Source: an uncultured Bacteroidales bacterium
GTDB taxonomy: Bacteria > Bacteroidota > Bacteroidia > Bacteroidales > Paludibacteraceae
NCBI GenBank assembly: GCA_902774185.1
Contig: CACYHE010000006.1
Location: forward strand, 47,305 to 111,304
Direction: 5' to 3'
DNA length: 64,000 nucleotides
This document shows, piece after piece, positions 6,374 through 63,402 of this stretch (position 1 is the first letter of the stretch; each line of letters opens with the position of its first letter). The position numbers and the translations under genes were made by a program. Under the pieces are notes generated by a model that searched no databases, was not told the origin of the DNA, and was given only the letters and a program-made list of their open reading frames with translations.

Positions 6374-6740
6374 AAATAAATATAGATAAATACTGAATAG
6401 TTGTTTAGATACTGCGTACCATGCGTATTATTTTGCCAAGCTGCTCTTTTAAATAGATTTAACGATCACCTTATCAAAATAATCCTCATCTCATCGAGAT
6501 AAAACAACTATTCAGCGATAAACAAAGATAAAATTTTTCAACGCATAGTGTAATTTTTTATCAATGATCCGCAACAAATTTATCTATGTTTATTGCTTTT
6601 GAATGATTTTGACACGAAGGTGTGTGGATTAGAGCGATTGAGCAGATAGGAAAGCTTGTTTTCATAGATGATCAAGCGGTCTAATACACAAGGAGCAAAG
6701 CTCTAAAATCATTTAAAAGTGTTTATCTTGGTTTATATAC
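6374..6740 (+). ncRNA. duplicated structured leader element, copy A
   Basis: ~365 nt between the promoter and the start of 6755-9508; a second copy lies at 9756-10118 before 10261-14781. The last ~220 nt are nearly identical in the two copies. Visible pairings: CTGAATAGTTGTTT (6393-6406) with AAACAACTATTCAG (6502-6515), 14 bp; GCGATAAACAAAGATAAA (6515-6532) with TTTATCTATGTTTATTGC (~6580-6597); AATGATTTT (~6602) with AAAATCATT (~6705); TAGAGC (~6630) with GCTCTA (~6700); a small ACAC-GAAG-GTGT hairpin between them; GCTTG with CAAGC inside. The ends also look like imperfect terminal inverted repeats (ATAGATAAATAC near 6381, GTGTTTATCTTG near 6719). It could be a cis-regulatory RNA or a MITE-like element; I do not recognise an Rfam family. 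Confidence 0.6.
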
Positions 6741-6754
6741 AAATAATAAATACA

Positions 6755-9755: not shown

Positions 9756-10118
9756 AACATAGATAAACACTGAATAATAATTTTATCACTACGTGATTAC
9801 GAATCTTTGTTCTGATAACTTATTTTTGAATACATTCAACATAACTTATCCGATCAAACATTCATCTCTTAAAGATACAAATTATTATTCTGCGATAAAC
9901 AAAGATAAATTTTTTCAAAGCATAGTGTAACTTTTTATACACTGATCCGCTATGAATTTTATCTATGTTTATTGCTTTTGAATGATTTTGACACGAAAGT
10001 GCGTGGATTAGAGCGATTGAGCAGATAGAAAAGCTTGTTTTCATAGATGATCAAGCGGTCTGAGACACAAGGAGCAAAGCTCTAAAATCATTTAAAAGGT
10101 TTTATCTTAATTTATATA
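9756..10118 (+). ncRNA. duplicated structured leader element, copy B
   Basis: Second copy of the element at 6374-6740. The helix corresponding to the 14-bp stem of copy A is CTGAATAATAATTT (~9768-9781) with AAATTATTATTCTG (~9878-9891). The inner base pairs are changed on both sides relative to copy A, so pairing is kept while sequence is not. The downstream ~220 nt (GATAAACAAAGATAAA, TTTATCTATGTTTATTGC, AATGATTTT..AAAATCATT, GCTTG..CAAGC) is almost the same as in copy A. The stretch 10119-10260 that follows holds two more small inverted repeats (TAGGC-ATT-GCCTA near 10160; TATATAC..GTATATA near 10200) and no gene. Confidence 0.6.
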
Positions 10119-10260
10119 CGAAAAGAAGGCGAAACGGGACAGGAACGGATCGATTACGTAGGCATTGCCTATGAATCACGTATCCTACCCACCTTATATA
10201 TACTTATAGTATATATCCCGTGATTTTGAAAATTGATAATTATTAAGTAGGTATTAGTAT

Positions 10261-13200: not shown

Positions 13201-14781
13201 TTGAGCGGTTTGACACCTGCCACCTCGTATCAGTTCTGCTTACTGCCGACTTGTTTGGGTGAGGAAGAGTCGAATTGGACCACACCGGTATTCTTCACCA
13301 CCAAAGCAACTGAACTCATCCCCTATAGCAATGATTTCGAAGCAGAGACGCCGGGTGAAGTACCGTTTAACTGGAGCCGTATCTCCGCTTCGGAATACCC
13401 GCAGGTAAGCCACGATTCCTATGCCTACAGAGATGGTGGCAGCTTCGGTGACCAAGGCAACAGCGTGAAGTTCTACGGTGTTAATGACCAGATCTTAGTA
13501 TTCCCCGAGTTTGATGCAAATCTTGGCGACTTGATTGTTTCCTTCCACTACCGTAACCGCGACTGTACCATGCAGTTGGGTTATATAGAAGAAGACGGTA
13601 CAACCTTCGTAGCTCTTGAGACATTGTCTAACCAAACCGGTTACGGTGAGTACCCGTTCGAGAAAGACCTCTACGGCATCAGCAGCGATGCAGCGAACCT
13701 CGCTATCCGTTACTCCAATGCCGGTGGTACGGCTCAAGCTTGGGTGGATAATGTGGAAGTAAAAGAGGCTACTTGTGGTCAACCGACCGACTTGGCGTTT
13801 GATAATGTTACGGCAAACTCCGTACACATTAGTTGGTCGGCTTCGGCTCGTGGTACTGAGTCTAACTATCAGTATATCCGTCAAGTATGGAGCGAAGACG
13901 ATCCTAACTGGGCAAGCGCTACCTTGATCGGAAGCGATGTGACAGAACTGAACATTACCGGTTTGAACGCCAACACCAGATATGAGTTCTATCTGCGCTC
14001 CTACTGCGGTGTAAGCGACCAGAGCACACCGGTGAAAGTAGAGTTCACTACGCTGATGAAGGACGAAGTATTCGAAGACCTGCCTACTGCAACGGACAAC
14101 GAGAGCCGTCTGGCGGCCTTGGCAGGACAAACGATTAACATGACTATCAAGCGTCCGTTGTTGCTCAACGGTGATTACTGCACACTCTGCTTGCCATTCG
14201 ACCTGAGTGCTTCAGAAATAGCAAATCCCGAGTGCCCGCTGCACGGCTTCGTCATTAAAGAGTTTGAGATGTCACAAGCAGCTTCGGGTGCAGTGAACAT
14301 CTACCTGAATCAGGTAACCTCTATTGAGGCGGGTAAGGCATACTTCGTACGCTACGCCGGAGAGCCTTCTGAAGATCGACTGACACCGATGACTTTCCGT
14401 AGCGTAGAGATCGTACTTAGCACACCGCTGGACGAAGAGTTGACCGATGATTGCACACCGCATGGCGTCTTCAACCCGTACGCTTTGGTTGCTAACGATG
14501 TGACTACACTCTTCCTCTCATCGAACAACACGCTTTATTACCCAAGTGCGAACGGTACGATGAACGGTTTCCGTGCCTACATCAAGGTAGGCGACGCACT
14601 CAGTGCTCCTATCCGTCGCGGCGCTCCGATCCGTATCGTGGAGAAAGAGAATACGACTACAAGCTTGGATCAACTCACCAATGACAAATCACCAATGACA
14701 AATAAAGTCCTCCGTGACGGACAGATCATCATCATTCGTGACGGCAAAGAATACAATATAATGGGTATTATGGTGAAATGA
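10261..14781 (+). CDS. large secreted FN3 / choice-of-anchor-J repeat protein
   Basis: 1506 residues with a signal peptide (ends near NNAWA). Residues ~26-170 form a beta domain marked by YLDSDDRTIEGSY, shared with 14969-16462 (VLNSDDRTLEGVY). FN3 and choice-of-anchor-J modules then alternate. FN3 modules start near residues 178, 430, 695, 935 and 1175 (ATTATVSWTSSESAWQYVCL; GATITWNANSMSAWVMQVSE; SAHMTWTAGGSETAWRLQYR). Anchor-J modules carry FPWNEGFESA, NNDFEGLGDHVIPECWD, FSESFSSASALPSCW and YSNDFEAETPGEVPFNW. A last beta domain (~1290-1465) precedes the linker LTNDKSPMTNK and the tail VLRDGQIIIIRDGKEYNIMG. The gene is preceded by leader copy B and followed by a peptide gene at 14815. The likely role is surface adhesion or glycan binding. 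Confidence 0.88.
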   Translation: MKKSLLYSFFITAMLCIVGINNAWALDYNCIITNISIEQSDAITINRFKLTINQSAVATASGNTAYTNSIELYLDSDDRTIEGSYSSANAATNKINKDLTSFNNGSREIRTNATSTFVINKVSDGVYKIKPCTLCLQNTSTHSGTYNYRYAYANKTNAISGTTTDYQFEFTPQYAVAPTSLSTSSVGATTATVSWTSSESAWQYVCLPSSTTLTEELWTSNAVSTNTKSVNLTGLTPATKYKFYVISDRGANGTSVISSKEFTTECATVSSFPWNEGFESATSAELPLCWQKITAGTANVMASSSYQKSGSNSVCLVGGGSSTDVIAVLPEFTTNISNLAISFWYKTPVDDEFYDYGDTKVGYVTNTSSASSFVATSGNLTQTESFDEVENISFDGAPSGARMAIRFTGGVSNGRVYIDDITVTEKPTCNKPTGVAVTADSETAEGATITWNANSMSAWVMQVSEGDAASWGDDINVATNSKVLTGLKAHTLYYVRVKATCGVYGDSEWSDNASFTTLCGTVSVSASSSWNNDFEGLGDHVIPECWDNSASTTTSSWGSGYIWGTYERSSNKSLAMDNAVCDNGTSLINTPDIAIPDDGREYELTFDYSNMAIAGNNLYVKISANGGAFVEKGVYYPSGNVSSYPGEFVPATISLADYSGQTIKIQFFANPTSGTASTGGAMFIDNVSVHKATTCFQPTALAASNLTANSAHMTWTAGGSETAWRLQYRTDGGSWSAEQAVSTTPAFDIESLSANTEYFVRIKAYCGVEDQSEWSEVASFTTLCAAESMPFSESFSSASALPSCWEATPASGTYKWGAYENSGAYSVQLRTGSSGSAELRMPPVALSEDAILRFEWKNVNGASVNIYVSTDGGSSRTMIPTDLSGIHADWATKVFDLSAYTGETALIYFVANFSTANQYAYLDDVEVVARPCEMILNIAAAPITGGGTLSWSGNVKKIRYKKGSDEWSYATPANNAGPHTLSGLTPATSYQFCLLPTCLGEEESNWTTPVFFTTKATELIPYSNDFEAETPGEVPFNWSRISASEYPQVSHDSYAYRDGGSFGDQGNSVKFYGVNDQILVFPEFDANLGDLIVSFHYRNRDCTMQLGYIEEDGTTFVALETLSNQTGYGEYPFEKDLYGISSDAANLAIRYSNAGGTAQAWVDNVEVKEATCGQPTDLAFDNVTANSVHISWSASARGTESNYQYIRQVWSEDDPNWASATLIGSDVTELNITGLNANTRYEFYLRSYCGVSDQSTPVKVEFTTLMKDEVFEDLPTATDNESRLAALAGQTINMTIKRPLLLNGDYCTLCLPFDLSASEIANPECPLHGFVIKEFEMSQAASGAVNIYLNQVTSIEAGKAYFVRYAGEPSEDRLTPMTFRSVEIVLSTPLDEELTDDCTPHGVFNPYALVANDVTTLFLSSNNTLYYPSANGTMNGFRAYIKVGDALSAPIRRGAPIRIVEKENTTTSLDQLTNDKSPMTNKVLRDGQIIIIRDGKEYNIMGIMVK
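14671..14706 (+). repeat. in-frame ACCAATGACAAAT tandem repeat
   Basis: CTCACCAATGACAAATC and ACCAATGACAAATAA encode LTNDKSPMTNK in front of the secretion tail. The DNA is nearly identical to 16349-16385. Confidence 0.75.
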
Positions 14782-14968: not shown

Positions 14969-16462
14969 ATGAAAAAGATCTTTTTAGCTGTCGCACTATG
15001 TGCGATGACGTTAGTTGCAAATGCAGCAACTTACAATTATCTGTGTGCGATCACAGAGTTGACAATTGATACCCTGCAGAGTAACACAAAAAACCAGTTT
15101 ACGCTGAACTGGACGCAGAAATGCAAGAACACGGCAGAGTACAGTACCAAACCGAATACCACCTATACCACAACGGTGAAGTTGGTTCTCAATTCCGATG
15201 ACCGTACCCTCGAAGGAGTCTATACCACCGAAGGGGCAAGTGCTACCAGCAGTAGTGCTAACGTCAACGACCAGACGATTAACCTCGTGACCTCGGAGTT
15301 ATACTACGGTTCTACCCGTCGTCTGCTTCGTACGGACTCTATCTCCACCTTCACCATTATCAAGTTGGATGACACCCATTACGGCATCAGTATCGGTCGC
15401 CTGTGTTTCACAGCCGCCGCACTGGCTGACCGCAACAAGAACACCTATAACTACAATTTATGCTACGCGGAGGAAGATATCCTTACCCAAGGCATCGAAC
15501 CTACGCCCTACATCTTCGGTTATACCGGTGAGTATGAGGAGGCCGTTTATAACTACGACATGACCGTTAATGGTATCAGTGTAGTTCGCGACGACAGCGA
15601 ATATGACGCTATCCGCTATTTCCTGACGCTTAGTTGCGTAGGTAAGAACCGCGAAAACAACATCGAGCGTAATTACGAAGTACAGTTGGCCATTTACCCC
15701 ACTTCGGAGTCCATCGTGGGTACGTTTGCCACGCAAGGCGGTAACCTGCTCTATTCGTCCAACAGCTACGTCAAGGACCTCAAGATTAACAAGACCCGTT
15801 ACCTTGCCAATGACTCGATCAGCAGTATTCAGATCAAGTCAAAGGGCGTGAACCAATATAGTTTCTATGGCGGTACGCTTATCTGTACAGATATTGATGC
15901 CAACTACATGGCTATTTATGGCAAAAAACGCGTAGAAGCTGTGCATTATTACCACTTCAGCGATAATGACGGTCAGGGGATCCCCTTCGGTTACAACGAA
16001 ACAAGCACAGAGATTGAGTTAACGGCAAATAACATCGCTATCGAGAGCACTATTAACGGACTTGAACTCACGCTCCAGACTACCGATGTCAATAACGTCG
16101 CTTATACGGTTTATCTGATTTTGGACAGCGAATCGCTTGCCGGCACGTTTACCTACACCAGCGGTTTGAGCGCTTGGTCCAAAGTGGAGCGTGGTACCAT
16201 CAGCAGTTCGTACGTCGCAAGCGGCGCGACCGTCACCATCAACGCGAAGGGTAACAACGCTTACACGATCTCCGGTAGTTTGCTTTGCGAGAACGGCAAT
16301 ACGTATATCCTCAAGGCGTACGATTTTAACAACGGAACTGTCGGAATTGATCAAATCACCAATGACAAATCACCAATGACAAATAAGGTCATCCGTGACG
16401 GACAGTTGATTATCATCAATGACGGTAAGATCTTCAACGCTCAAGGTGCACAGCTTCAATAA
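14969..16462 (+). CDS. secreted beta-repeat protein with short T9SS-like tail
   Basis: 497 residues from the ATG at 14969 (MKKIFLAVALCAMTLVANAA signal peptide). An in-frame ATG 12 nt upstream is less likely because the signal peptide starts cleanly at MKKIF. The protein is built of about three copies of a ~140-residue beta domain (residues ~20-175, 180-325, 330-470) marked by LNSDDRTLEGVYTT, YPTSESIVGTFATQGG and LDSESLAGTFTYTSG. The domain also occurs once in 10261-14781 and about four times in 16559-18472. The C-terminus is the repeat-encoded linker ITNDKSPMTNK and the tail VIRDGQLIIINDGKIFNAQG. I do not recognise the domain; a secreted structural or binding role is inferred. Confidence 0.8.
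   Translation: MKKIFLAVALCAMTLVANAATYNYLCAITELTIDTLQSNTKNQFTLNWTQKCKNTAEYSTKPNTTYTTTVKLVLNSDDRTLEGVYTTEGASATSSSANVNDQTINLVTSELYYGSTRRLLRTDSISTFTIIKLDDTHYGISIGRLCFTAAALADRNKNTYNYNLCYAEEDILTQGIEPTPYIFGYTGEYEEAVYNYDMTVNGISVVRDDSEYDAIRYFLTLSCVGKNRENNIERNYEVQLAIYPTSESIVGTFATQGGNLLYSSNSYVKDLKINKTRYLANDSISSIQIKSKGVNQYSFYGGTLICTDIDANYMAIYGKKRVEAVHYYHFSDNDGQGIPFGYNETSTEIELTANNIAIESTINGLELTLQTTDVNNVAYTVYLILDSESLAGTFTYTSGLSAWSKVERGTISSSYVASGATVTINAKGNNAYTISGSLLCENGNTYILKAYDFNNGTVGIDQITNDKSPMTNKVIRDGQLIIINDGKIFNAQGAQLQ
16349..16385 (+). repeat. in-frame ACCAATGACAAAT tandem repeat
   Basis: Two consecutive copies of ATCACCAATGACAA-type words encode ITNDKSPMTNK just before the tail of the 14969-16462 product. 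Confidence 0.75.
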
Positions 16463-20476: not shown

Positions 20477-21559
20477 ATGAAAATTGAACAAAGTGAAGTA
20501 AAAGACCTGAAAGCTGTCGTAACGCTGACTATTGAGCCGGCAGACTATCAGGAAGAAGTGGCAAAGCAACTCAAAGAAGTGCGCCACAAAGCACAAATGC
20601 CGGGTTTCCGTCCGGGAATGGTTCCTGCCGGCTTGGTAAAGAAAATGTACGGCAAGGGTATCTTGGCGGACGTTCTTAACAAAAAAGTAGGCGAAGGTCT
20701 GCAGAAACATATCGAGGATAACAAACTGAATATCCTGGGTGATCCGCTGCCTAACAAAGAGCAAGGGAACGTAGATCTCGATCACGAAGAGACCTTCACC
20801 TTTGCCTTCGACATCGCTGTCGCACCTGAGTTCGACGCTAAGTTGACGGCTAAGAACAAACTGCCGGAATATACCATCGAACCGACCGAAGAGATGATCG
20901 ACAAACAGGTGGAAGCTTATGCCAACCGTTTCGGCGAATACATCCCGGAGGACAAAGAGAAAGGTACGAAAGCAGAAGTAAAACCGGTACCGGTAGATGC
21001 TGAGTTGTTCGCAAAGGTTTACGGCGCTGACGCTCCGAAGGATGAGAAAGCGTTCCGTGCTCGTATCAAAGAAGACATCGTTCGCAGCCTGGATGAAGAG
21101 TCCAAATACCGTTTCGGTATCGACGTCAAAGAGGCGGTCATGAAGAAGATGGAGAAGGTCGAATTCCCAGTGGACTTCCTCAAACGCTGGGTACTTGAGA
21201 CCAACGATAAGATGACCCAAGAGGAACTCGATAAGGACTTCGATAAGATGCTCGACGAACTCAAATGGCACCTCGCTAAGGACCAGTTGATGAAAGAGTT
21301 CAAGATCGACGTGCAGAAAGAGGAAGTGGAAGAGTTCGCGAAACGTATCGCTAAGATGCAGTTTATGCAGTACGGCCTGATGAACGTAGAAGACGCTATG
21401 CTCGCAAACTACGCACAGGAGATGCTCAAGAACGAGAACCAACTGCGTAACATCGTGGAGCGCGTCGTAGAAGACAAGATCTTCGCTGCTATCAAAGGCG
21501 TTGCCAAGATCGAAGCAAAGACCATCTCGCAAGAGGATTTTGACAAACTCTTTAAATGA
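20477..21559 (+). CDS. tig: trigger factor without the PPIase domain
   Basis: 360 residues from the ATG in MKIEQSEVKDLKAVVTLTIE. The N-terminal ribosome-binding domain carries the signature PGFRPGMVP at ~residue 43 (family GFRxGxxP), and the C-terminal chaperone domain is present (AELFAKVYG ... LKRWVL ... LTWHL-like ELKWHLAKDQLM ... DKLFK). Between RFGEYIPEDKEKGTKAEVKP (~150-170) and the C-terminal domain, the ~90-100 residue middle domain found in the usual ~450-residue Bacteroidetes trigger factors is missing. The protein would still hold nascent chains, but without prolyl-isomerase-type folding. The frame is intact on both sides, so this is a clean deletion, not a frameshift. It overlaps mpl by 4 nt. 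Confidence 0.9.
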   Translation: MKIEQSEVKDLKAVVTLTIEPADYQEEVAKQLKEVRHKAQMPGFRPGMVPAGLVKKMYGKGILADVLNKKVGEGLQKHIEDNKLNILGDPLPNKEQGNVDLDHEETFTFAFDIAVAPEFDAKLTAKNKLPEYTIEPTEEMIDKQVEAYANRFGEYIPEDKEKGTKAEVKPVPVDAELFAKVYGADAPKDEKAFRARIKEDIVRSLDEESKYRFGIDVKEAVMKKMEKVEFPVDFLKRWVLETNDKMTQEELDKDFDKMLDELKWHLAKDQLMKEFKIDVQKEEVEEFAKRIAKMQFMQYGLMNVEDAMLANYAQEMLKNENQLRNIVERVVEDKIFAAIKGVAKIEAKTISQEDFDKLFK

Positions 21560-22923
21560 CACACATTCATTTTATAGCTATTGGCGGGGCGGCGATGCAT
21601 AATTTGGCACTCGCTGTTGCCTCCAAAGCGGGGTACAAGGTAACGGGGTCGGACGATGAAATCTTCGACCCTGCTTTGTCTCACTTGCGCGACGCAGGTC
21701 TCCTGCCCGATGAGATGGGTTGGCACCCCGAACGGATCACACCCGACATCGATGCCATCATCTTAGGCATGCACGCACGCGAAGACAACCCCGAACTGGT
21801 TCGGGCTCGGGAGTTAGGCATCAAGATTTACTCCTTCCCCGAGTACCTCTACGAACAAACCAAAGATAAGATCCGTATCGTCGTAGGCGGGTCACACGGT
21901 AAGACAACCACTACCTCCATGATCCTCTATGTGCTCAACCGACTCGGTATCGAAACCGACTACATGGTAGGGGCGCAGATAGAAGGCTTTGAACGAATGG
22001 TTCGCTTGTCCGATACGGCGAAATACGCTGTCTTCGAAGGAGACGAATACCTCACCTCCCCACTCGACCTTCGCTCCAAATTTCTTTGGTACCACCCCCA
22101 TGTAGCTATCCTTACCGGCATCGCTTGGGATCATATCAATGTCTTCCCCACTTTCCCGGAGTACGTGGACACCTTTCGTAAGTTCGTTCATTCGATCGAA
22201 CCCGAAGGGTCCTTCATCTACTATAAAGGCGACGAGAATCTGCGTCTGTTGGCGGAAGAAATCACAAATCACCATACGGCGCAAGCAGATCGGAAGAAAT
22301 CACAAATCACAAATATTTCCGTCATCCCGTATCGTGAATATGACGGAAACACCCCCATGCAGGTCTTCGGACGTCACAACATGCAGAACCTCCAGGCAGC
22401 AATGCTTGCTTGTCACTGTATCGGCGTAGCACCCGACGATTTCTACCGGGAGATCAGTACCTTCACCGGCGCCAGCAACCGTCTGGAGAAGATATGCGAG
22501 ACGGAAACGAGTGTGGCGTACAAAGATTTTGCACACTCGCCGTCCAAACTCAAAGCAACCGTCAATGCCGTTCGGGAACGCTATCCGGAGAAGAAACTCA
22601 TCGCCTGCATGGAGCTACACACCTTCAGCAGCCTCATGGCAGATTTCTTACCGCAATACAAGGGCTGTATGGCGGAAGCGGACATCGCCTACGTCTATTT
22701 CAATCCCAAAGTAATCGAACATAAACGACTCACTCCGATCACAAAAAAGGAAGTTCGCGATGCGTTTGGCACGAAAAATGTAGAGGTGTTTACAGAGAGC
22801 GAAGCCCTGCAAGAACGTCTCAAAAGCCTCAACTACGGCAACACGGCTTTATTAATGATGTCATCAGGCACCTTCGACGGCATTAACGTAAAAGAGTTTG
22901 CTCAAAAATTATTGTCGGCATAA
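21556..22923 (+). CDS. mpl: Mur-ligase family peptidoglycan synthetase (Mpl-like)
   Basis: 455 residues. Ligates recycled muropeptide (tripeptide) to UDP-MurNAc, or a closely related Mur-ligase reaction, in the cytoplasm. Visible: N-terminal Rossmann loop IAIGGAAMHNLA, nucleotide loop GGSHGKTTTTSMIL (~residue 112), EGDEYLTSPLD (Mg/ATP region), AWDHINVFP, the Mur C-terminal domain with GASNRLEKI and DFAHSPSKLKAT, and MSSGTFDG near the end. Residues ~236-253 (ITNHHTAQADRKKSQITN) are encoded by a 55-bp repeat element at 22260-22314. They fall in a variable loop just before the C-terminal domain, so activity may be kept. Confidence 0.88.
   Translation: MTHIHFIAIGGAAMHNLALAVASKAGYKVTGSDDEIFDPALSHLRDAGLLPDEMGWHPERITPDIDAIILGMHAREDNPELVRARELGIKIYSFPEYLYEQTKDKIRIVVGGSHGKTTTTSMILYVLNRLGIETDYMVGAQIEGFERMVRLSDTAKYAVFEGDEYLTSPLDLRSKFLWYHPHVAILTGIAWDHINVFPTFPEYVDTFRKFVHSIEPEGSFIYYKGDENLRLLAEEITNHHTAQADRKKSQITNISVIPYREYDGNTPMQVFGRHNMQNLQAAMLACHCIGVAPDDFYREISTFTGASNRLEKICETETSVAYKDFAHSPSKLKATVNAVRERYPEKKLIACMELHTFSSLMADFLPQYKGCMAEADIAYVYFNPKVIEHKRLTPITKKEVRDAFGTKNVEVFTESEALQERLKSLNYGNTALLMMSSGTFDGINVKEFAQKLLSA
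22260..22314 (+). repeat. 55-bp in-frame repeat element, copy 1 (inside mpl)
   Basis: Structure: 13-nt arm AATCACAAATCAC, a 25-nt core starting CATACGGCGC and ending GATCGGAAGA, then AATCACAAATCACAAAT. It is identical base for base to the copy at 47119-47173 and differs at two bases from that at 47654-47708. Here it is read in the phase A|ATC|ACA|AAT. All three forward phases are free of stops. Confidence 0.9.
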
Positions 22924-45846: not shown

Positions 45847-46251
45847 ATGGAAGTTGTAGGAAAAATCATACAAGTACTGCCTATCCAAGAAGGTGTAGGC
45901 CGTAACGGCAATCCGTGGAAACTGCAGGCATATGTACTCGAGACACTCGACCAGTATCCCCGTAAGGTGCATTTCGAAGTGTTCGGTGAAGACCGTATCA
46001 AACAAAACCCCTGCGAACTCGATCAACTCGTTACCGTCAGTTTCGATATCGAGAGCCGAGAGTTCAATGGCCGTTGGTACACGTCTATCCGTGCATGGAA
46101 AATCCAACAGGGTGATACCACCCAAGCCGTTGCTCCGGTAGCTCCCGCTCAGCCTGCACCGGCAGCTGCTCCGGTGGCTGCTCCGACGGAAGCACCCGTA
46201 GATCCTTTTGACGCTTCTACAGGAGAAGGAACAAGTGACCTGCCCTTCTGA
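45847..46251 (+). CDS. DUF3127 OB-fold protein with SSB-like acidic tip
   Basis: 134 residues. The N-terminal ~85 residues are the DUF3127 domain (MEVVGKIIQVLPIQEGVGRN, VHFEVFGEDRI, SFDIESREFNGRWYTSIRAW), an OB-like fold related to single-strand binding proteins. A Pro/Ala-rich linker (VAPAQPAPAAAPVAAPTEAP) leads to an acidic tail ending TSDLPF, which mimics the DDIPF tip of bacterial SSB that recruits repair proteins. A role in nucleic-acid binding or repair-protein recruitment is inferred. RecO, a known SSB-tail binder, is encoded two genes downstream. Confidence 0.85.
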   Translation: MEVVGKIIQVLPIQEGVGRNGNPWKLQAYVLETLDQYPRKVHFEVFGEDRIKQNPCELDQLVTVSFDIESREFNGRWYTSIRAWKIQQGDTTQAVAPVAPAQPAPAAAPVAAPTEAPVDPFDASTGEGTSDLPF

Positions 46252-47240
46252 TGCGTAGGTTAACCAAAGATATACTGATCAGTGTCCTGCTGGTGGTCGT
46301 TGCAGTCGTCTGCATCGTCCGCTGGCAGGCATGGTTCGGTATGCCCGAAGAACCCTTCTGGCCCAACGAGAATAAGGACTACACCTTCCCCGGTCCGCTC
46401 ATCGGTGATTCGGTCTGTGCTCTGTGTTCTGACAGCGAAGCGGTCTGTCCAACTATTCTGATTTTGGGCGACATCCATAACCGACTCACCAAAGCCGACT
46501 ATGACTCCCTCGCCGCACGCGTACCCGACATCGACCTCATTGCACAAGTAGGTGACTGGATGGAACGGGGACAGAATTTCTACTATCAGTCACTCATACG
46601 CGAATGGACCGATAGTGAACTCAACGGTACACCCGTCATCGCGTGTCCCGGTAACCATGAGTACTCCAAGGGTCTGCATAAAAAACTCTCACCCGTATGG
46701 GAACAAGCCTTCACCTATCCGCATAACGGACCCGTAGGCGTACCCGGCGCTACCTATTACGTGGACCTGCCGCAGATGCGTATCATCGCTATCGACACCA
46801 ACCCCCTCAAACGACTCGTCTATCTCACACGCACCCTCACTTGGCTGCACAGAACCATGGATAGTGCCGATGACCGCTACATCGTCGTGCTCATGCATCA
46901 TCCCGTCATCTCTGCCGGCAAAGGACGCTTCAACACTCTCATCTATTGCACCTTCCGCCATGCCCTCGAACAAGCCGACCTCGTCATCGCCGGACATGAC
47001 CATAGTTACATGCGCAAAGATCCGTTCGTTGTCCTTAACACTGCCGGAAGAACCAAAAAACAACGCGCCAACCTCCATGCCGCCGTTTCCGACACCGTCC
47101 CTGTCTACGGCGTTCTCCAATCACAAATCACCATACGGCGCAAGCAGATCGGAAGAAATCACAAATCACAAATGCAATTGACGATCCATCGTCTCAGCGA
47201 TGGAGCGACAATCGACTCCCTCTATGTTAGCCGCGACTGA
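46251..47240 (+). CDS. membrane-anchored calcineurin-like metallophosphoesterase
   Basis: 329 residues. One N-terminal membrane segment (ILISVLLVVVAVVCIVRWQ) puts the catalytic domain outside the cytoplasm. Metal-site motifs are complete: ILGDIHNRL (D-x-H), QVGDWMERGQ (GD), CPGNHEYSKG (GNHE), VLMHHPV (H), IAGHDHSYMR (GHxH). The C-terminus holds the insert SQITIRRKQIGRNHKSQM, encoded by the 55-bp element at 47119-47173, between the strands VYGVLQ and QLTIHRLSDG. Substrate unknown. It overlaps the DUF3127 stop by 1 nt and recO by 17 nt. Confidence 0.85.
   Translation: MRRLTKDILISVLLVVVAVVCIVRWQAWFGMPEEPFWPNENKDYTFPGPLIGDSVCALCSDSEAVCPTILILGDIHNRLTKADYDSLAARVPDIDLIAQVGDWMERGQNFYYQSLIREWTDSELNGTPVIACPGNHEYSKGLHKKLSPVWEQAFTYPHNGPVGVPGATYYVDLPQMRIIAIDTNPLKRLVYLTRTLTWLHRTMDSADDRYIVVLMHHPVISAGKGRFNTLIYCTFRHALEQADLVIAGHDHSYMRKDPFVVLNTAGRTKKQRANLHAAVSDTVPVYGVLQSQITIRRKQIGRNHKSQMQLTIHRLSDGATIDSLYVSRD
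47119..47173 (+). repeat. 55-bp in-frame repeat element, copy 2 (inside phosphoesterase gene)
   Basis: Identical to copy 1 in mpl, but read in a different phase (AA|TCA|CAA|ATC), so it gives SQITIRRKQIGRNHKSQM instead of the mpl peptide. Confidence 0.9.
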
Positions 47241-47823
47241 TGCCATAGTCCTGTCGCTGCAACCTTACTCGGACAAAGCGCATATCCTGCACGCGTACAC
47301 CCGCACGGGCGGACGCGCCAATTATAAGGTATTCGGCCTTGGACGAAAAAATGCTATCGGTATATACACCCCCCTATCCGTTGTTCAACTGACTACCGAT
47401 GAACATTCGGTACGAACCGCACAACTGACTTTCGTTCCGACTACCCTCACAACCGATCCGTACAAACGAACGATCGCGCTCTTCATCGCCGAAGTGCTCT
47501 CCCACGTCCTGCGTCACCCCATGCCCGACGAACCCATGTTCGACTTCATCGCTCAAGCCATTCAAGAACTGGATCGAACCGATGAACCGCAAAACTTCCA
47601 CATCGCTTTCCTCATCAACTTCGCTGCCAAACTCGGCTTCGCCATTCCCGAAGAATCACAAATCACCATACGGCGCAAGCAGATCGGAAGCAATCACCAA
47701 TCACAAATGACACGTAGGGATCGCCAAGCCGCACTCCGCGCCCTCTGCGACTATTTCGCAGAACATGTCGAAACATGGCAAAATCCCCGTTCGCTCGACG
47801 TGCTTATCGAAGTGTTTAACTAA
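47224..47823 (+). CDS. recO: DNA repair protein RecO
   Basis: 199 residues from the ATG in MLAATDAIVLSLQPYSDKAH; an ATG at 47200 lies inside the upstream gene and would add residues not expected at a RecO N-terminus. OB-fold N-terminal domain (HILHAYTRTGGRANYKVFGL, PLSVVQLTTDEH), then the helical domain (LFIAEVLSHVLRHPMPDEPM, FDFIAQAIQELD, FLINFAAKLGFAIPEE). RecO loads RecA with RecR and binds the SSB tail. It is shorter than the usual ~240 residues. After IPEE it carries SQITIRRKQIGSNHQSQM from the 55-bp element at 47654-47708, then a helical C-terminus (QAALRALCDYFAEHV). A zinc-finger cysteine set is not visible. Confidence 0.85.
   Translation: MLAATDAIVLSLQPYSDKAHILHAYTRTGGRANYKVFGLGRKNAIGIYTPLSVVQLTTDEHSVRTAQLTFVPTTLTTDPYKRTIALFIAEVLSHVLRHPMPDEPMFDFIAQAIQELDRTDEPQNFHIAFLINFAAKLGFAIPEESQITIRRKQIGSNHQSQMTRRDRQAALRALCDYFAEHVETWQNPRSLDVLIEVFN
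47654..47708 (+). repeat. 55-bp in-frame repeat element, copy 3 (inside recO)
   Basis: Two substitutions relative to copies 1 and 2 (GGAAGCAATC for GGAAGAAATC, and CACCAATC for CACAAATC). Same phase as copy 2, encoding SQITIRRKQIGSNHQSQM. Only 480 bp separate it from copy 2. Confidence 0.9.
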
Positions 47824-48967: not shown

Positions 48968-49069
48968 ATGAAAAGAACTATCTTCTTGGCAATCGTGGCG
49001 GGTATGGTCATTTTCGCACACGCGCAAAACAACCAACTCTTCACCGTCCAAGGACAACCCTTGCAATAA
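48968..49069 (+). CDS. 33-residue signal-peptide-only ORF, possible gene remnant
   Basis: MKRTIFLAIVAGMVIFAHAQ is a complete signal peptide with a normal cleavage site; only ~13 residues follow (NNQLFTVQGQPLQ) before TAA. It has a good promoter and a normal start. It ends directly against an AATCACAAAT repeat array (49070-49103). Two readings are possible: a genuinely tiny secreted peptide, or the 5' stump of a secreted-protein gene whose body was lost. Confidence 0.45.
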   Translation: MKRTIFLAIVAGMVIFAHAQNNQLFTVQGQPLQ

Positions 49070-49103
49070 TCACAAATCACAAATAACAAATCACAAATCA
49101 CAA
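49070..49103 (+). repeat. AATCACAAATCAC tandem array abutting yqeY start
   Basis: TCACAAATCACAAATAACAA and ATCACAAATCACAA, about five copies of a 7-8 nt word, end in CAA-ATG of yqeY. This is the same word as the arms of the 55-bp elements, without the 25-nt core. Confidence 0.8.
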
Positions 49104-49529
49104 ATGAAAAATGAGATAAACGCCTTGATCATGGAGGCAATGAAAAACCATGATTCCGTACGCACAGAATCCCTGCGCGCCATCAAGAGTGCGTTCCTCA
49201 ACTGGTCAACCAGCAAAGAGAATGCAGGTAAAGAAATGACCGAAGCGGACGAAATCCAGATCATCAAGAAGATGGTCAAGCAGCGTCAGGAATCTGTAGA
49301 ACAGTACATCGCGGCCAAGCGTCAGGAACTGGCCGATGCCGAACAAGCACAAATCAACGTGCTGGAGACCTTCCTCCCCAAAGCCGCTTCGGAAGAGGAC
49401 ATCGTCCGCGCCTTCCAAGCCGCAAAAGAAACCAACGGCTGGGAACTCTTCGTCAAAGCCGTCAAAGCCGCCCTCCCCAATGCCGACGGCAAAATGGTCG
49501 CTCAGGTCGTTCAGAGCCAATTAGCGTGA
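49104..49529 (+). CDS. GatB/YqeY domain protein
   Basis: 141 residues. All-helical YqeY family: MKNEINALIMEAMKNHDSVR, TLRAIKSA-like ESLRAIKSAFLNW (~residues 22-34), IQIIKKMVKQRQESVEQYIAAKRQELA, EQAQINVLETFLPK, and the GatB tail-like C-terminal domain (EEDIVRAFQAA ... DGKMVAQVVQSQL). Length is normal for the family. A tRNA-dependent amidotransferase-related role is suggested by the family, but the function of free-standing YqeY is unproven. It overlaps the MutT remnant by 4 nt. Confidence 0.92.
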   Translation: MKNEINALIMEAMKNHDSVRTESLRAIKSAFLNWSTSKENAGKEMTEADEIQIIKKMVKQRQESVEQYIAAKRQELADAEQAQINVLETFLPKAASEEDIVRAFQAAKETNGWELFVKAVKAALPNADGKMVAQVVQSQLA

Positions 49530-61830: not shown

Positions 61831-63307
61831 CGAACGTTTGCAGGAGATTGCAGAAGGCATGCAGAACCTAAACGAACGGCTTGTGTACGTTGGTGGAGCA
61901 TTAGCAGGATCGTACGCCACTGATCCTGCGGCTTTAGAGCCCAGACCCACTACGGATGTGGACTGTGTGGTCAACTCTGCCAACTATGCCGAACATGCCG
62001 CTTTCGAGGAACTGCTCCGCAAACAACATTTTCAGAACGATACGGAATCAGTGCCTCCTGTTATTTGCCGATGGGTATATAATGGCGAACTGGTGGACGT
62101 AATGTCTTACGAAGAAAAGAGCCTAAGTTTCGGCAACCGATGGTATCGGCCGGGATTTGAGCATCGCGAGCAGTACAAACTCCCGTCCGGACAGACGATT
62201 TATCGTCTTAGTGCACCTTATTATATCGCTACAAAAATAGAGGCTTTACTATCGCGAGGCGGAAACGATTGGCGAGGAGCAAAAGACTTTGAGGATATCA
62301 TCTACGTGCTCAATTATTGCACGGATTTCATGACGCGTTTTTGTGCAGCAGAGACGGATGTGCAGCAATATTTGTCGGAGCAGTTTGAGACCATGTTAAG
62401 GCGTCCCAATTTCAATGAAGAGATTGAGTGCGCCATCTCTGCGGACGAGATTGAACGCACCGACATGCTTATACAAATAATGTGCGACATTGCTCTTTAT
62501 AAGCCGGAACCAGGTTTGAAGATCCAATTTGTGAGTGACCTGCATCTGGAGTTTCCGGACAACCGCGCGTGGTTGGCGGCTCATCCGCTGGAAGTGACGG
62601 GTGATATACTGCTTATTGCCGGTGATACGGCGTACTTGGACCTGCCCGATTCCGGACGTGAGACCTATAAGGCGTACGATTTCTGGGATTGGGCTTCACG
62701 CCATTACAAGCAAGTCATCGTGTGCCTCGGCAACCATGATTTCTACGGATATTATGATCTGGCGACTATGCCGGATAACTATTGTCTGGACATCCGTCAG
62801 AACGTAAAAGCGTACTACAACAAAGTCCTGCATCTGACAGCCGAAGGCGGTCTCACGACTGACAGCAAAGACGCTTTAACCGATATCATCGTCTCCACGC
62901 TTTGGTCGAAGATCGAGCCGGAAAACGAATATCTGGTAGAGCGCGGAGTGAGTGATTTCTACCGCATCAAATATGAGGGGCACCGCCTCAATGCACAGAA
63001 TTTCAACGCCGAACATGAGCGTTGTCTGGCATTTATCCGACAAGCCGTAACAGATAGTTGCGCAAGGACAAAGATTGTGCTCACCCACCATGTACCGACA
63101 CAATTATGCACTGCGCCCGAGTTCAAAGGAAGCACTATCAATGGGGCTTTTACGGTGGAGTTGGGTAACTATATTGCCGATTCGGGTATAGATTACTGGA
63201 TTTACGGGCACTCGCATCGCAATATAGATGCCAAGATCGGTAACACGCAAATCCTCTCCAACCAGTTCGGCTATCTCTCCCACGGCGAGCCGCAGCACAA
63301 CGGCTAA
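61814..63307 (+). CDS. nucleotidyltransferase--metallophosphoesterase fusion protein
   Basis: 497 residues in one uninterrupted frame. Residues ~1-225: nucleotidyltransferase of the AbiEii-like type, with YVGGALAGSYATDPAALEPR then PTTDVDCVV (the GS...DxD catalytic core), YIATKIEALLSRGGNDWRGA and KDFEDIIYVLN. Residues ~235-497: calcineurin-like phosphoesterase with all metal motifs, FVSDLHLEF, LLIAGDTAYL, VCLGNHDFYG, VLTHHVP and WIYGHSHRN. One half would add nucleotides and the other could hydrolyse phosphodiester or phosphomonoester bonds. The junction is YKPEPGLKIQFVS. The phosphoesterase half resembles stand-alone Bacteroidetes proteins of ~250 residues. Cytoplasmic; no signal peptide. Confidence 0.85.
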   Translation: MSKTNNERLQEIAEGMQNLNERLVYVGGALAGSYATDPAALEPRPTTDVDCVVNSANYAEHAAFEELLRKQHFQNDTESVPPVICRWVYNGELVDVMSYEEKSLSFGNRWYRPGFEHREQYKLPSGQTIYRLSAPYYIATKIEALLSRGGNDWRGAKDFEDIIYVLNYCTDFMTRFCAAETDVQQYLSEQFETMLRRPNFNEEIECAISADEIERTDMLIQIMCDIALYKPEPGLKIQFVSDLHLEFPDNRAWLAAHPLEVTGDILLIAGDTAYLDLPDSGRETYKAYDFWDWASRHYKQVIVCLGNHDFYGYYDLATMPDNYCLDIRQNVKAYYNKVLHLTAEGGLTTDSKDALTDIIVSTLWSKIEPENEYLVERGVSDFYRIKYEGHRLNAQNFNAEHERCLAFIRQAVTDSCARTKIVLTHHVPTQLCTAPEFKGSTINGAFTVELGNYIADSGIDYWIYGHSHRNIDAKIGNTQILSNQFGYLSHGEPQHNG

Positions 63308-63402
63308 TTCCTTCAGTCTTTCATTCCTTCATTCGTTCAACGTTCATTCGTTCATTCGTTCACTCCTTCATTCGTTCATTCGTTAATTCGTTACCATCCC
63401 CT
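63308..63402 (+). repeat. tandem array of TTCATTCGTTCATTCG words
   Basis: About twelve copies of an 8-nt unit (TTCATTCG / TTCATTCC / TTCACTCC / TTAATTCG) directly after the fusion gene's stop codon. It is the longest array in the window. Confidence 0.8.

What the first reader, a model, noticed from the sequence alone, without database searches (positions are those of the whole stretch)
22260..22314. A 55-bp repeat element inserted in frame in the essential-pathway gene mpl and in two other genes
Seen directly: three copies (22260-22314, 47119-47173, 47654-47708), two of them identical and one with two changes, each inside a different, otherwise intact gene (Mur ligase, phosphoesterase, RecO). 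Structure: 13-nt arm, 25-nt core, 17-nt arm. The element has no stop codon in any of the three forward frames, a property that would let it enter coding DNA in any phase. In mpl it encodes an 18-residue loop at a place where Mpl orthologues vary. This recalls the Rickettsia palindromic elements that live inside protein genes, but the element is much shorter and not palindromic. I know of no named Bacteroidetes family of this kind.
Basis: partly seen in the sequence, partly recalled or inferred. Interest (0 to 1): 0.85.

Follow-up and report, generated by a model that had tools for sequence, protein, structure and literature searches.

The report
Tiny coding repeat nested in heptamer arrays
A rumen-type bacterium and some close relatives carry a 24-letter DNA repeat copied into heptamer repeat arrays inside working genes, where it adds eight amino acids without breaking the reading frame.

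Summary
The three copies are real. The moving part, however, is not a 55-bp element but a 24-bp core (CATACGGCG-NN-AGCAGATCGGAAG) set in phase between heptamer arrays (consensus AANTNNC). Named relatives are Paludibacteraceae/Bacteroidales MAGs, many from rumen. The core or a non-coding leader form occurs in 27 of 178 congeneric genomes; under a similar pattern 0 of 180 genomes from 32 other genera of the family match. Of 48 copies read, 44 are the array-nested kind, in 24 genomes: 42 lie sense in open frames (gltX-, dnaX-, priA-, ispH- and uvrD-like among them), 1 antisense, 1 intergenic. Two orthologues (phosphoesterase, gltX) carry the same array without the core and differ by exactly 24 bp, with no target duplication. 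Arms differ between genomes and go with core variants; at one shared site the core sits one heptamer apart in two species. Longer hairpin forms lie in arrays of related genomes. Best reading: a non-autonomous micro-repeat copied between homologous heptamer arrays, with stop-free, in-frame copies kept by selection; the copying mechanism is inferred. It lives inside genes like Rickettsia palindromic elements, but is shorter, not palindromic and tied to heptamer arrays. I found no description in the papers searched.

The parts
22273..22296 (+). 24-nt core, copy 1, in mpl; read in the frame HTAQADRK
22259..22272 (+). left heptamer arm (AAATCAC)2 of copy 1
22297..22314 (+). right heptamer arm (AAATCAC)2 AAAT of copy 1
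21556..22923 (+). mpl (Mur ligase), host gene of copy 1
   Evidence: Pfam Mur_ligase, Mur_ligase_M, Mur_ligase_C
47132..47155 (+). 24-nt core, copy 2, in the phosphoesterase gene; read in the frame IRRKQIGR
47118..47131 (+). left arm CAATCAC AAATCAC of copy 2
47156..47173 (+). right arm (AAATCAC)2 AAAT of copy 2
46251..47240 (+). metallophosphoesterase gene, host of copy 2; its orthologue in genome G006 is a clean empty site
47667..47690 (+). 24-nt core, copy 3, in recO
47653..47666 (+). left arm of copy 3 (GAATCAC AAATCAC)
47691..47708 (+). right arm of copy 3 (CAATCAC CAATCAC AAAT); holds the two changes
47200..47823 (+). recO, host gene of copy 3
   Evidence: Pfam RecO_C over its cut-off, RecO_N under it
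14680..14699 (+). same heptamer class without core, in the 3' part of a large ORF
16354..16380 (+). same heptamer class without core, in the 3' part of a large ORF
49068..49108 (+). heptamer array without core, running up to an ATG at 49104

Best explanation
The 24-bp core is a non-autonomous repeat that lives inside heptamer arrays. SHOWN: it sits in phase between heptamers (C|core|AA); two orthologous arrays lack it and differ by exactly 24 bp with no duplication; its arms vary among genomes and co-vary with core sequence variants; 42 of 44 array-nested copies are in sense orientation inside open frames; it was found in one genus only among the 33 of its family searched. INFERRED: heptamer arrays grow by slippage and are scattered through the genome. 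A core in one array is copied into another array of the same heptamer type by homology-dependent repair (gene conversion or template switching) primed by the 7-21 nt in-phase arms. In genes the event is tolerated because 24 nt is eight codons, because array and core carry no sense-strand stop in any frame, and because the sites (mpl, recO, phosphoesterase, gltX examined) are variable segments. Selection removes antisense, frame-shifting and stop-bearing copies. The core probably derives from a hairpin repeat of about 40-42 bp found in arrays of related species by loss of about 18 nt, which removes the hairpin's second arm and stop-bearing stretches. It behaves as neutral or selfish DNA that lengthens proteins.
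For: Copies and controls. In-phase arms: the 7 nt before the core match the 7 nt after it at 6.11 of 7 on average, against 1.3-2.1 at offsets that are not multiples of 7 (44 copies). Empty sites: the phosphoesterase segment is 171 nt here and 147 nt in G006, the gltX segment 90 nt here and 66 nt in G046; both align without gaps once 24 nt are removed. Same array, different junction: G000 and G176, aligned over 136 nt without gaps after removal, cores one heptamer apart, different variants. Arm-variant link: within genomes 13.2 of 14 arm identity for same-variant pairs (18 pairs) against 8.4 for different-variant pairs (28), reached by 31 of 5000 shuffles; between genomes 10.1 (135 pairs) against 8.65 (764), reached by 1 of 5000. 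Direction: 42 of 44 sense in open frames, 1 antisense, 1 intergenic. Host genes: 32 of 40 scanned ORFs have a Pfam match over its cut-off, L172 counted as a miss because the wrong ORF was scanned. In this genome 20 listed places have two AAATCAC units 8-38 nt apart; fillings other than variant heptamers are mainly the core. Long hairpin forms in arrays. Period 7 dominates: 126 arrays against 0-29 for each other period from 4 to 15 (29 at period 14), and 1 in a Markov control, in 464 kb of this genome whose stretches were partly chosen where arrays were known.
Against: Three copies (L038 and L156 at one site, L157) have no matching heptamer on the left, so two-armed copying does not explain them directly. 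Arms of 14-21 nt are short for RecA. The arm-variant link may partly be shared descent, which the shuffles do not remove. Exceptions exist: TCA cores also sit in AAATNNC arms (L158, L164, L168). No copying event was observed. Loss rather than gain at the empty sites is not excluded. The leader form shows that related sequence also occurs without heptamer arms.
Confidence: 0.6

Rival explanations
1. The core is moved by a transposase of the IS200/IS605 or RAYT kind that inserts single-stranded DNA next to a short target (C|AA) without target duplication; heptamer arrays are simply rich in that target.
For: No target duplication at the two empty sites and a nearly fixed C|AA junction (44 and 43 of 44). 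Long forms fold as hairpins. Three copies lack a left arm.
Against: No Y1_Tnp match at E 0.001 in the window's genome, which has the most copies read (8) and is 87% complete; 68 of 178 congeneric genomes match (48 over the cut-off), and by my reading of the listed rows 14 of the 27 core- or leader-bearing ones do. An arm-blind insertion would not give the arm-variant link. The short core has no hairpin to speak of (-1.5 kcal/mol).
Confidence: 0.2
2. The core and heptamers are selected for a function: a protein-binding site, a DNA uptake or repair signal, or a useful peptide.
For: The core is well conserved (13 of 24 positions invariant in 44 copies found with a mismatch-limited pattern). Several host genes are for repair or replication (RecO, UvrD, PriA, DnaX, DprA by Pfam). 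A related 20-mer lies in leaders of an unknown gene cluster.
Against: At most 8 copies per genome, and none found in 151 of 178 congeneric genomes. The core is read in all three frames (19, 15 and 7 copies, leaving out three doubtful ones), so no single peptide is kept. Host genes are otherwise unrelated. Sense bias is explained by stop codons.
Confidence: 0.1
3. A sequencing artefact: the core holds stretches identical to Illumina oligos (AGATCGGAAG, ATACGGCG, CAAGCAGA; oligo sequences recalled).
For: 13 of 44 copies share 10, 8 and 8 nt with the recalled TruSeq, P5 and P7 oligos, and most other variants share one or two of these stretches.
Against: Absent from 180 genomes of 32 other genera in the same family. 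Precisely in phase and in frame, with genome-specific arms and diverged variants (...GCAGATCGACAG...GATTGGAAG...GATCTGAAG). The same site is shared by two pairs of genomes. Two long forms checked have shorter adapter likeness, 6-7 nt.
Confidence: 0.03
4. Ordinary heptamer slippage only: the core is a chance interruption of an array, inherited by descent.
For: Heptanucleotide repeats are reported as the commonest class of such repeats in most genomes surveyed (passage of PMC4679880 citing another study).
Against: Variants of the same 24-mer lie at 42 separate sites in 24 genomes; only two sites are shared between genomes at the same position.
Confidence: 0.07

Closest known systems
Rickettsia palindromic elements (RPE) and the Wolbachia equivalents
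   Same: Dispersed repeats found both between genes and in frame inside conserved protein genes; open frame; probably neutral or selfish.
   Different: RPE are described as 105-146 bp with terminal inverted repeats and long stem-loops (passages of PMC2229807). The core here is 24 bp, not palindromic, nested in heptamer arrays, readable in all three frames. For Wolbachia only titles were seen.
GTAG- and CGTC-tagged REPs
   Same: 20-40-bp hairpin repeats, some inside genes; comparable with the 39-42-bp long forms here.
   Different: No GTAG or CGTC tag at the ends, no clear RAYT link, direct heptamer arms (passages of PMC3733652).
Heptanucleotide arrays: STRR of cyanobacteria (recalled; only listings seen) and TAACTGA repeats of Beggiatoaceae, some Cyanobacteria and five Bacteroidetes
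   Same: Tandem 7-nt units scattered through a genome.
   Different: TAACTGA repeats are mainly intergenic and carry stops in forward orientation (passages of PMC4679880). Here many arrays lie in genes in the stop-free sense, the unit changes between species at one site, and some hold a nested core.
Enterobacterial RU-1/2/3 (ERIC and kin) fused to reading frames
   Same: Small repeats found in frame inside annotated genes, in more than one frame.
   Different: 103-168 bp and not described, in the passages read, as nested in heptamers (PMC2759123).

Membership tests
Rickettsia palindromic elements | in-frame presence inside conserved protein genes | tested here: met
   42 of 44 array-nested copies in sense inside open frames; 32 of 40 scanned ORFs with Pfam matches over cut-off
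Rickettsia palindromic elements | length about 105-146 bp | tested here: not met
   24 bp; length of RPE
Rickettsia palindromic elements | palindromic, long stem-loop | tested here: not met
   short core folds at -1.5 kcal/mol; only the long forms have a hairpin
GTAG/CGTC REP | terminal GTAG or CGTC tag on a palindrome | tested here: not met
   ends are CATA.../GTAC... and ...AAG or ...GAG
GTAG REP | associated RAYT (Y1_Tnp) gene | tested here: inconclusive
   none at E 0.001 in the window's genome, which is 87% complete; 68 of 178 congeneric genomes match, without clear link to the core; neighbourhood of those genes not examined
IS200/IS605-like insertion | insertion without target duplication | tested here: met
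   two empty sites
Heptanucleotide repeat arrays (STRR-like) | tandem 7-nt units dispersed in the genome | tested here: met
MITE | terminal inverted repeats and target duplication | tested here: not met
   no duplication at two empty sites; no inverted ends seen in the 24-nt core

The most novel reading that the evidence does not exclude
Heptamer arrays are address labels: a mechanism in this genus, possibly templated synthesis at breaks rather than ordinary recombination, writes heptamers and a nested core into any array of the same address. Micro-elements thereby spread through essential genes with no transposase, no inverted ends and no target duplication, and the address itself is rewritten from species to species.
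Probability: 0.15. Interest if true: 0.9.

Novelty: new variant of a known kind. Interest (0 to 1): 0.62.

Why it matters
At 24 bp it is shorter than any of the in-gene mobile repeats described in the passages I read with a stated length, except that REPs of 20-40 bp are also reported inside genes; unlike those it is no palindrome. It enters proteins of core pathways. Its phase, length and stop-free frames show how a repeat can enter coding DNA in any reading phase. Clean empty sites in near relatives make the route by which selfish DNA lengthens proteins testable. It also gives a reason for odd peptides (ITNHKSQ, STLNSQL, KIQNSKF types) in proteins of this genus.

Tried and rejected
Discrete 55-bp transposon: rejected, arms vary and arrays lack the core at the same site. 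RNA family: five loci tested, only two miRNA hits far under their gathering scores. Viral origin: one pattern absent from IMG/VR by exact scan, and one 77-nt leader unit without match in 50,697 phage records; diverged copies could be missed. Adapter artefact: rejected, see rivals. DNA-uptake-like signal: copy number too low (at most 8 per genome; the usual numbers are recalled). Functional peptide: disfavoured because all three frames are used. RAYT: no support. Structure of Mpl with the insert: not possible, tool off; variability of the site rests on the alignment alone (no invariant column between A233 and P258 in 26 sequences, the window's own included). The MBL-fold gene of G018 has an array without core where G037 and G085 have the core, but the lengths do not differ by 24, so I do not count it as a clean empty site. 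In gltX, 15 of 30 loci gave a readable segment, and I count one of them (G046) as length-matched. In the phosphoesterase, 23 loci were read, one cut short, and I count only G006 as length-matched with an array. L172 was first given the wrong frame and reassigned on inspection. Literature searches without a description of such an element.

Full report
WHAT IS THERE. The three window copies are exactly as described: 22260-22314, 47119-47173 (identical) and 47654-47708 (two differences, positions 38 and 45), all on the + strand and all inside open frames of 455, 329 and 207 aa, namely Mpl, a metallophosphoesterase and RecO. No stop trinucleotide occurs in the 55 nt; the reverse strand of copy 1 has a stop in every frame. 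Mpl reads the core as HTAQADRK, the other two genes as IRRKQIG, so different frames are used even within the window.

REDEFINING THE ELEMENT. The arms are heptamers. Written as AAATCAC units, each copy is array, 24-nt core CATACGGCGCAAGCAGATCGGAAG, array; taking out 24 nt leaves an unbroken array in phase. The 17-nt arm has 192 matches at up to 2 mismatches in the 2.19-Mb genome (overlapping ones in one array counted separately) against 17 for the reversed control. Of 20 listed places with two AAATCAC units 8-38 nt apart, five hold the core (four distinct copies, the mpl one listed twice) and the others are filled with heptamers or variants of them. In 464 kb of this genome (the window and 20 stretches of 20 kb, partly chosen where one search had hits, so not a random sample) there are 126 period-7 arrays by my criterion against 0-29 for each other period from 4 to 15 and 1 in a Markov-shuffled control. 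Of the 126, 71 lie inside ORFs called by a crude longest-ORF rule, 59 of them with the A/C-rich strand as sense.

DISTRIBUTION. The nearest named relatives are Paludibacteraceae / Bacteroidales MAGs, many with rumen or gut in their titles. In the window's genus, 27 of 178 genomes have the core pattern at up to 2 mismatches; the reversed control was 0 in the listed rows. In a first look, 5 of 61 genomes matched at up to 3 mismatches of the strict pattern. In the family, 28 of 358 genomes match under a slightly different pattern, all in one genus of 33, so 0 of 180 outside the genus. I read 48 copies. Four (L154, L159, L169, L208) are a different, non-coding form (see LONG FORMS); three of the 27 genomes (G070, G103, G149) have only that form. 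The other 44 lie in 24 genomes, 8 of them in the window's own.

CODING CONTEXT. Of the 44, 42 are in sense inside an open frame, one (L158) is antisense inside a dehydrogenase-like ORF (judged by its sequence, no family search), one (L173) lies between genes. For L172 my first ORF choice was wrong; the copy is in frame in the other sense ORF. I scanned 40 ORFs with Pfam and count 32 with a match over the cut-off: 10 of 10, 9 of 10, 5 of 10 and 8 of 10 (L172's match is not counted, since the wrong ORF was scanned). For L153, L157, L174, L176, L177, L199 and L203 no family reached its cut-off, and for L162 and L156 none was sought; these rest on the open frame (L156 is 99% identical to L038). 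By Pfam, hosts include DUF4837, Mpl, RecO, GltX-, UvrD-, PriA-, DnaX-, DprA-, IspH- and PrmC-like proteins, a valyl-tRNA synthetase, phosphatidylserine decarboxylase, an FGGY kinase, GH3, GH32 and FecCD. Leaving out L158, L172 and L173, the core is read in frames 0, 1 and 2 in 19, 15 and 7 copies. An all-against-all comparison of the host ORFs (100 aa or more) found two sites shared between genomes at the same position: the MBL-fold gene (G037, G085) and an unnamed conserved gene (G000, G176).

JUNCTIONS. Over the 44 copies the last 7 nt before the core match the first 7 after it at 6.11 of 7, and 5.61 at an offset of 7, against 1.3-2.1 at offsets that are not multiples of 7. The base before the core is C in 44 of 44; the two after it are AA in 43 of 44. 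Core positions 10 and 11 vary most; 13 of the 24 positions are invariant, in a set gathered with a mismatch-limited pattern.

EMPTY SITES. The phosphoesterase of G006 has the same array without the core: 147 nt against 171, gap-free once 24 nt are removed. The gltX of G046 likewise: 66 against 90. No duplication of target is present. At the site shared by G000 and G176 the flanks align over 136 nt without a gap after removal, but the core sits one heptamer apart and its variant differs, which means either two insertions into one array or movement along it. For mpl, 90 of 110 loci examined gave the segment (some genomes appear twice, since two collections overlap): 42 have the plain 63-residue form, 1 is shorter and 47 are longer. 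Many of the longer ones have arrays with other 7- or 8-nt units; a few hold a GC-rich hairpin-like insert. Only the window's own has the core. RecO shows the same picture: 25 of 30 loci readable, other repeats at the site in several, the core only in the window's genome. These sites are recurrent landing places for repeats.

ARMS GO WITH CORE VARIANTS. Same-variant pairs within a genome have nearly identical arms (13.2 of 14, 18 pairs), different-variant pairs do not (8.4, 28 pairs); 31 of 5000 within-genome shuffles reach this. Between genomes the values are 10.1 (135 pairs) and 8.65 (764), reached by 1 of 5000; the L038/L156 pair, one site in two genomes, was left out of that count. Examples: AACTTTC arms with ...TTAGCAGATCGACAG in both G000 and G006; AATCATC/AATCAGC arms with ...ACAGCAG in both G133 and G145. 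Exceptions: TCA cores in AAATNNC arms in L158, L164, L168. Shared ancestry is not removed by these shuffles.

LONG FORMS. A search for GGCGNAAGCAGATCGTTNGAGGCTTG at up to 3 mismatches matched 17 of 178 genomes, not the window's. In G007, G049, G159, G171, G018 and G105 matches include 39-42-bp units such as GTACGGCTTTAGCCGATCGTTCGAGGCTTGCCGAGATAAG, mostly flanked by that genome's own 7-nt repeats; the unit shown folds as a hairpin (-11.8 kcal/mol), and G018 has several in one array. Two long forms sit in frame in genes: an alpha-galactosidase-like ORF in G171 and histidyl-tRNA synthetase in G169 (identified by sequence, not by a family search). A third form, a unit of about 55 bp once or twice in a row, is non-coding. 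In the five genomes where I read the surroundings (G070, G103, G149, G173, G176) it lies ahead of small genes; five of their proteins that I scanned gave no Pfam match over a cut-off. The short core matches the G169 long form and the leader form over its first 20 nt, apart from the variable positions, and the other hairpin units more loosely; it lacks about 18 nt of the rest, including stop-bearing stretches. I infer that it is a reading-frame-safe derivative; the direction is not proven.

MECHANISM. What is shown: in-phase nesting, precise 24-bp difference, no duplication, modular arms, arm-variant link, sense bias. What is inferred: copying between arrays of the same heptamer type by homology-dependent repair, followed by selection on orientation and frame. 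A transposase of the IS200/IS605 type would also leave no duplication (recalled). I found no Y1_Tnp at E 0.001 in the window's genome; 68 of 178 congeneric genomes match, 48 over the cut-off, and 14 of the 27 core- or leader-bearing ones by my reading of the listed rows. That gives it no support but does not exclude it. Copies without a left arm (L038/L156, L157) are the main difficulty for the recombination model.

ARTEFACT CHECK. The commonest core variant (13 of 44) shares AGATCGGAAG, ATACGGCG and CAAGCAGA with Illumina oligos (recalled). This is striking, but genus restriction, in-phase and in-frame placement, diverged variants, shared sites and long forms make an artefact very unlikely. 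By their titles the named relatives are metagenome assemblies or uncultured drafts, so a long-read check is still wanting.

LITERATURE. Passages read: PMC2229807, PMC4679880, PMC2759123, PMC3733652. Others were seen only as listings with abstract starts. None describes, in what I saw, heptamer arrays with a nested core in Bacteroidales genes; two searches returned nothing. This covers only the open-access library held.

VERDICT. It works like intragenic selfish repeats (RPE-like) but fails two defining features of RPE (length, palindrome), so I file it as a new variant of the known kind 'dispersed repeats that live in coding sequence', with heptamer-array nesting as the new trait.

Noticed in passing
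L154, L159, L169, L208, L273 (surroundings read); also L278-L281, L285, L287 (unit seen, surroundings not read): A unit of about 55 bp (CATACGGCG..AGCAGATCGTT..GAGGCTTGCTTTGAAAAAGAAAGCCGATAAAAG) in the leaders of small genes of unknown function; tandem in G018 and G124. Possible source of the core.
   Followed up: partly
mpl site in L060, L076, L120, L111: Other in-frame inserts at the same Mpl loop: GC-rich hairpin-like stretches (CTCCTCCCTTGAGGGGAGGTCGGGAGGGG in three of them, read as SSSLEGRSGGV).
   Followed up: no
window 63299-63394: Array of 8-nt units (ATTCGTTC type); octamer-like arrays also occur at the mpl site of several relatives (ATCACGAG type).
   Followed up: no
window 6576-6743 and 9955-10122: 168-nt near-identical pair (93%), with a second 60-nt pair (88%) just before each.
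   Followed up: no
window 14668-14767 and 16349-16448: Heptamer stretch directly before a repeated motif near the C-terminus (..RDGQ.III.DGK..) of large ORFs, as if the arrays served as linkers there.
   Followed up: no
core sequence in general: Because the core holds AGATCGGAAG, adapter trimming could cut reads at it and so break or hide copies in short-read assemblies; counts may be too low (for example the copy at G018:C87:202 lies near a contig end).
   Followed up: no
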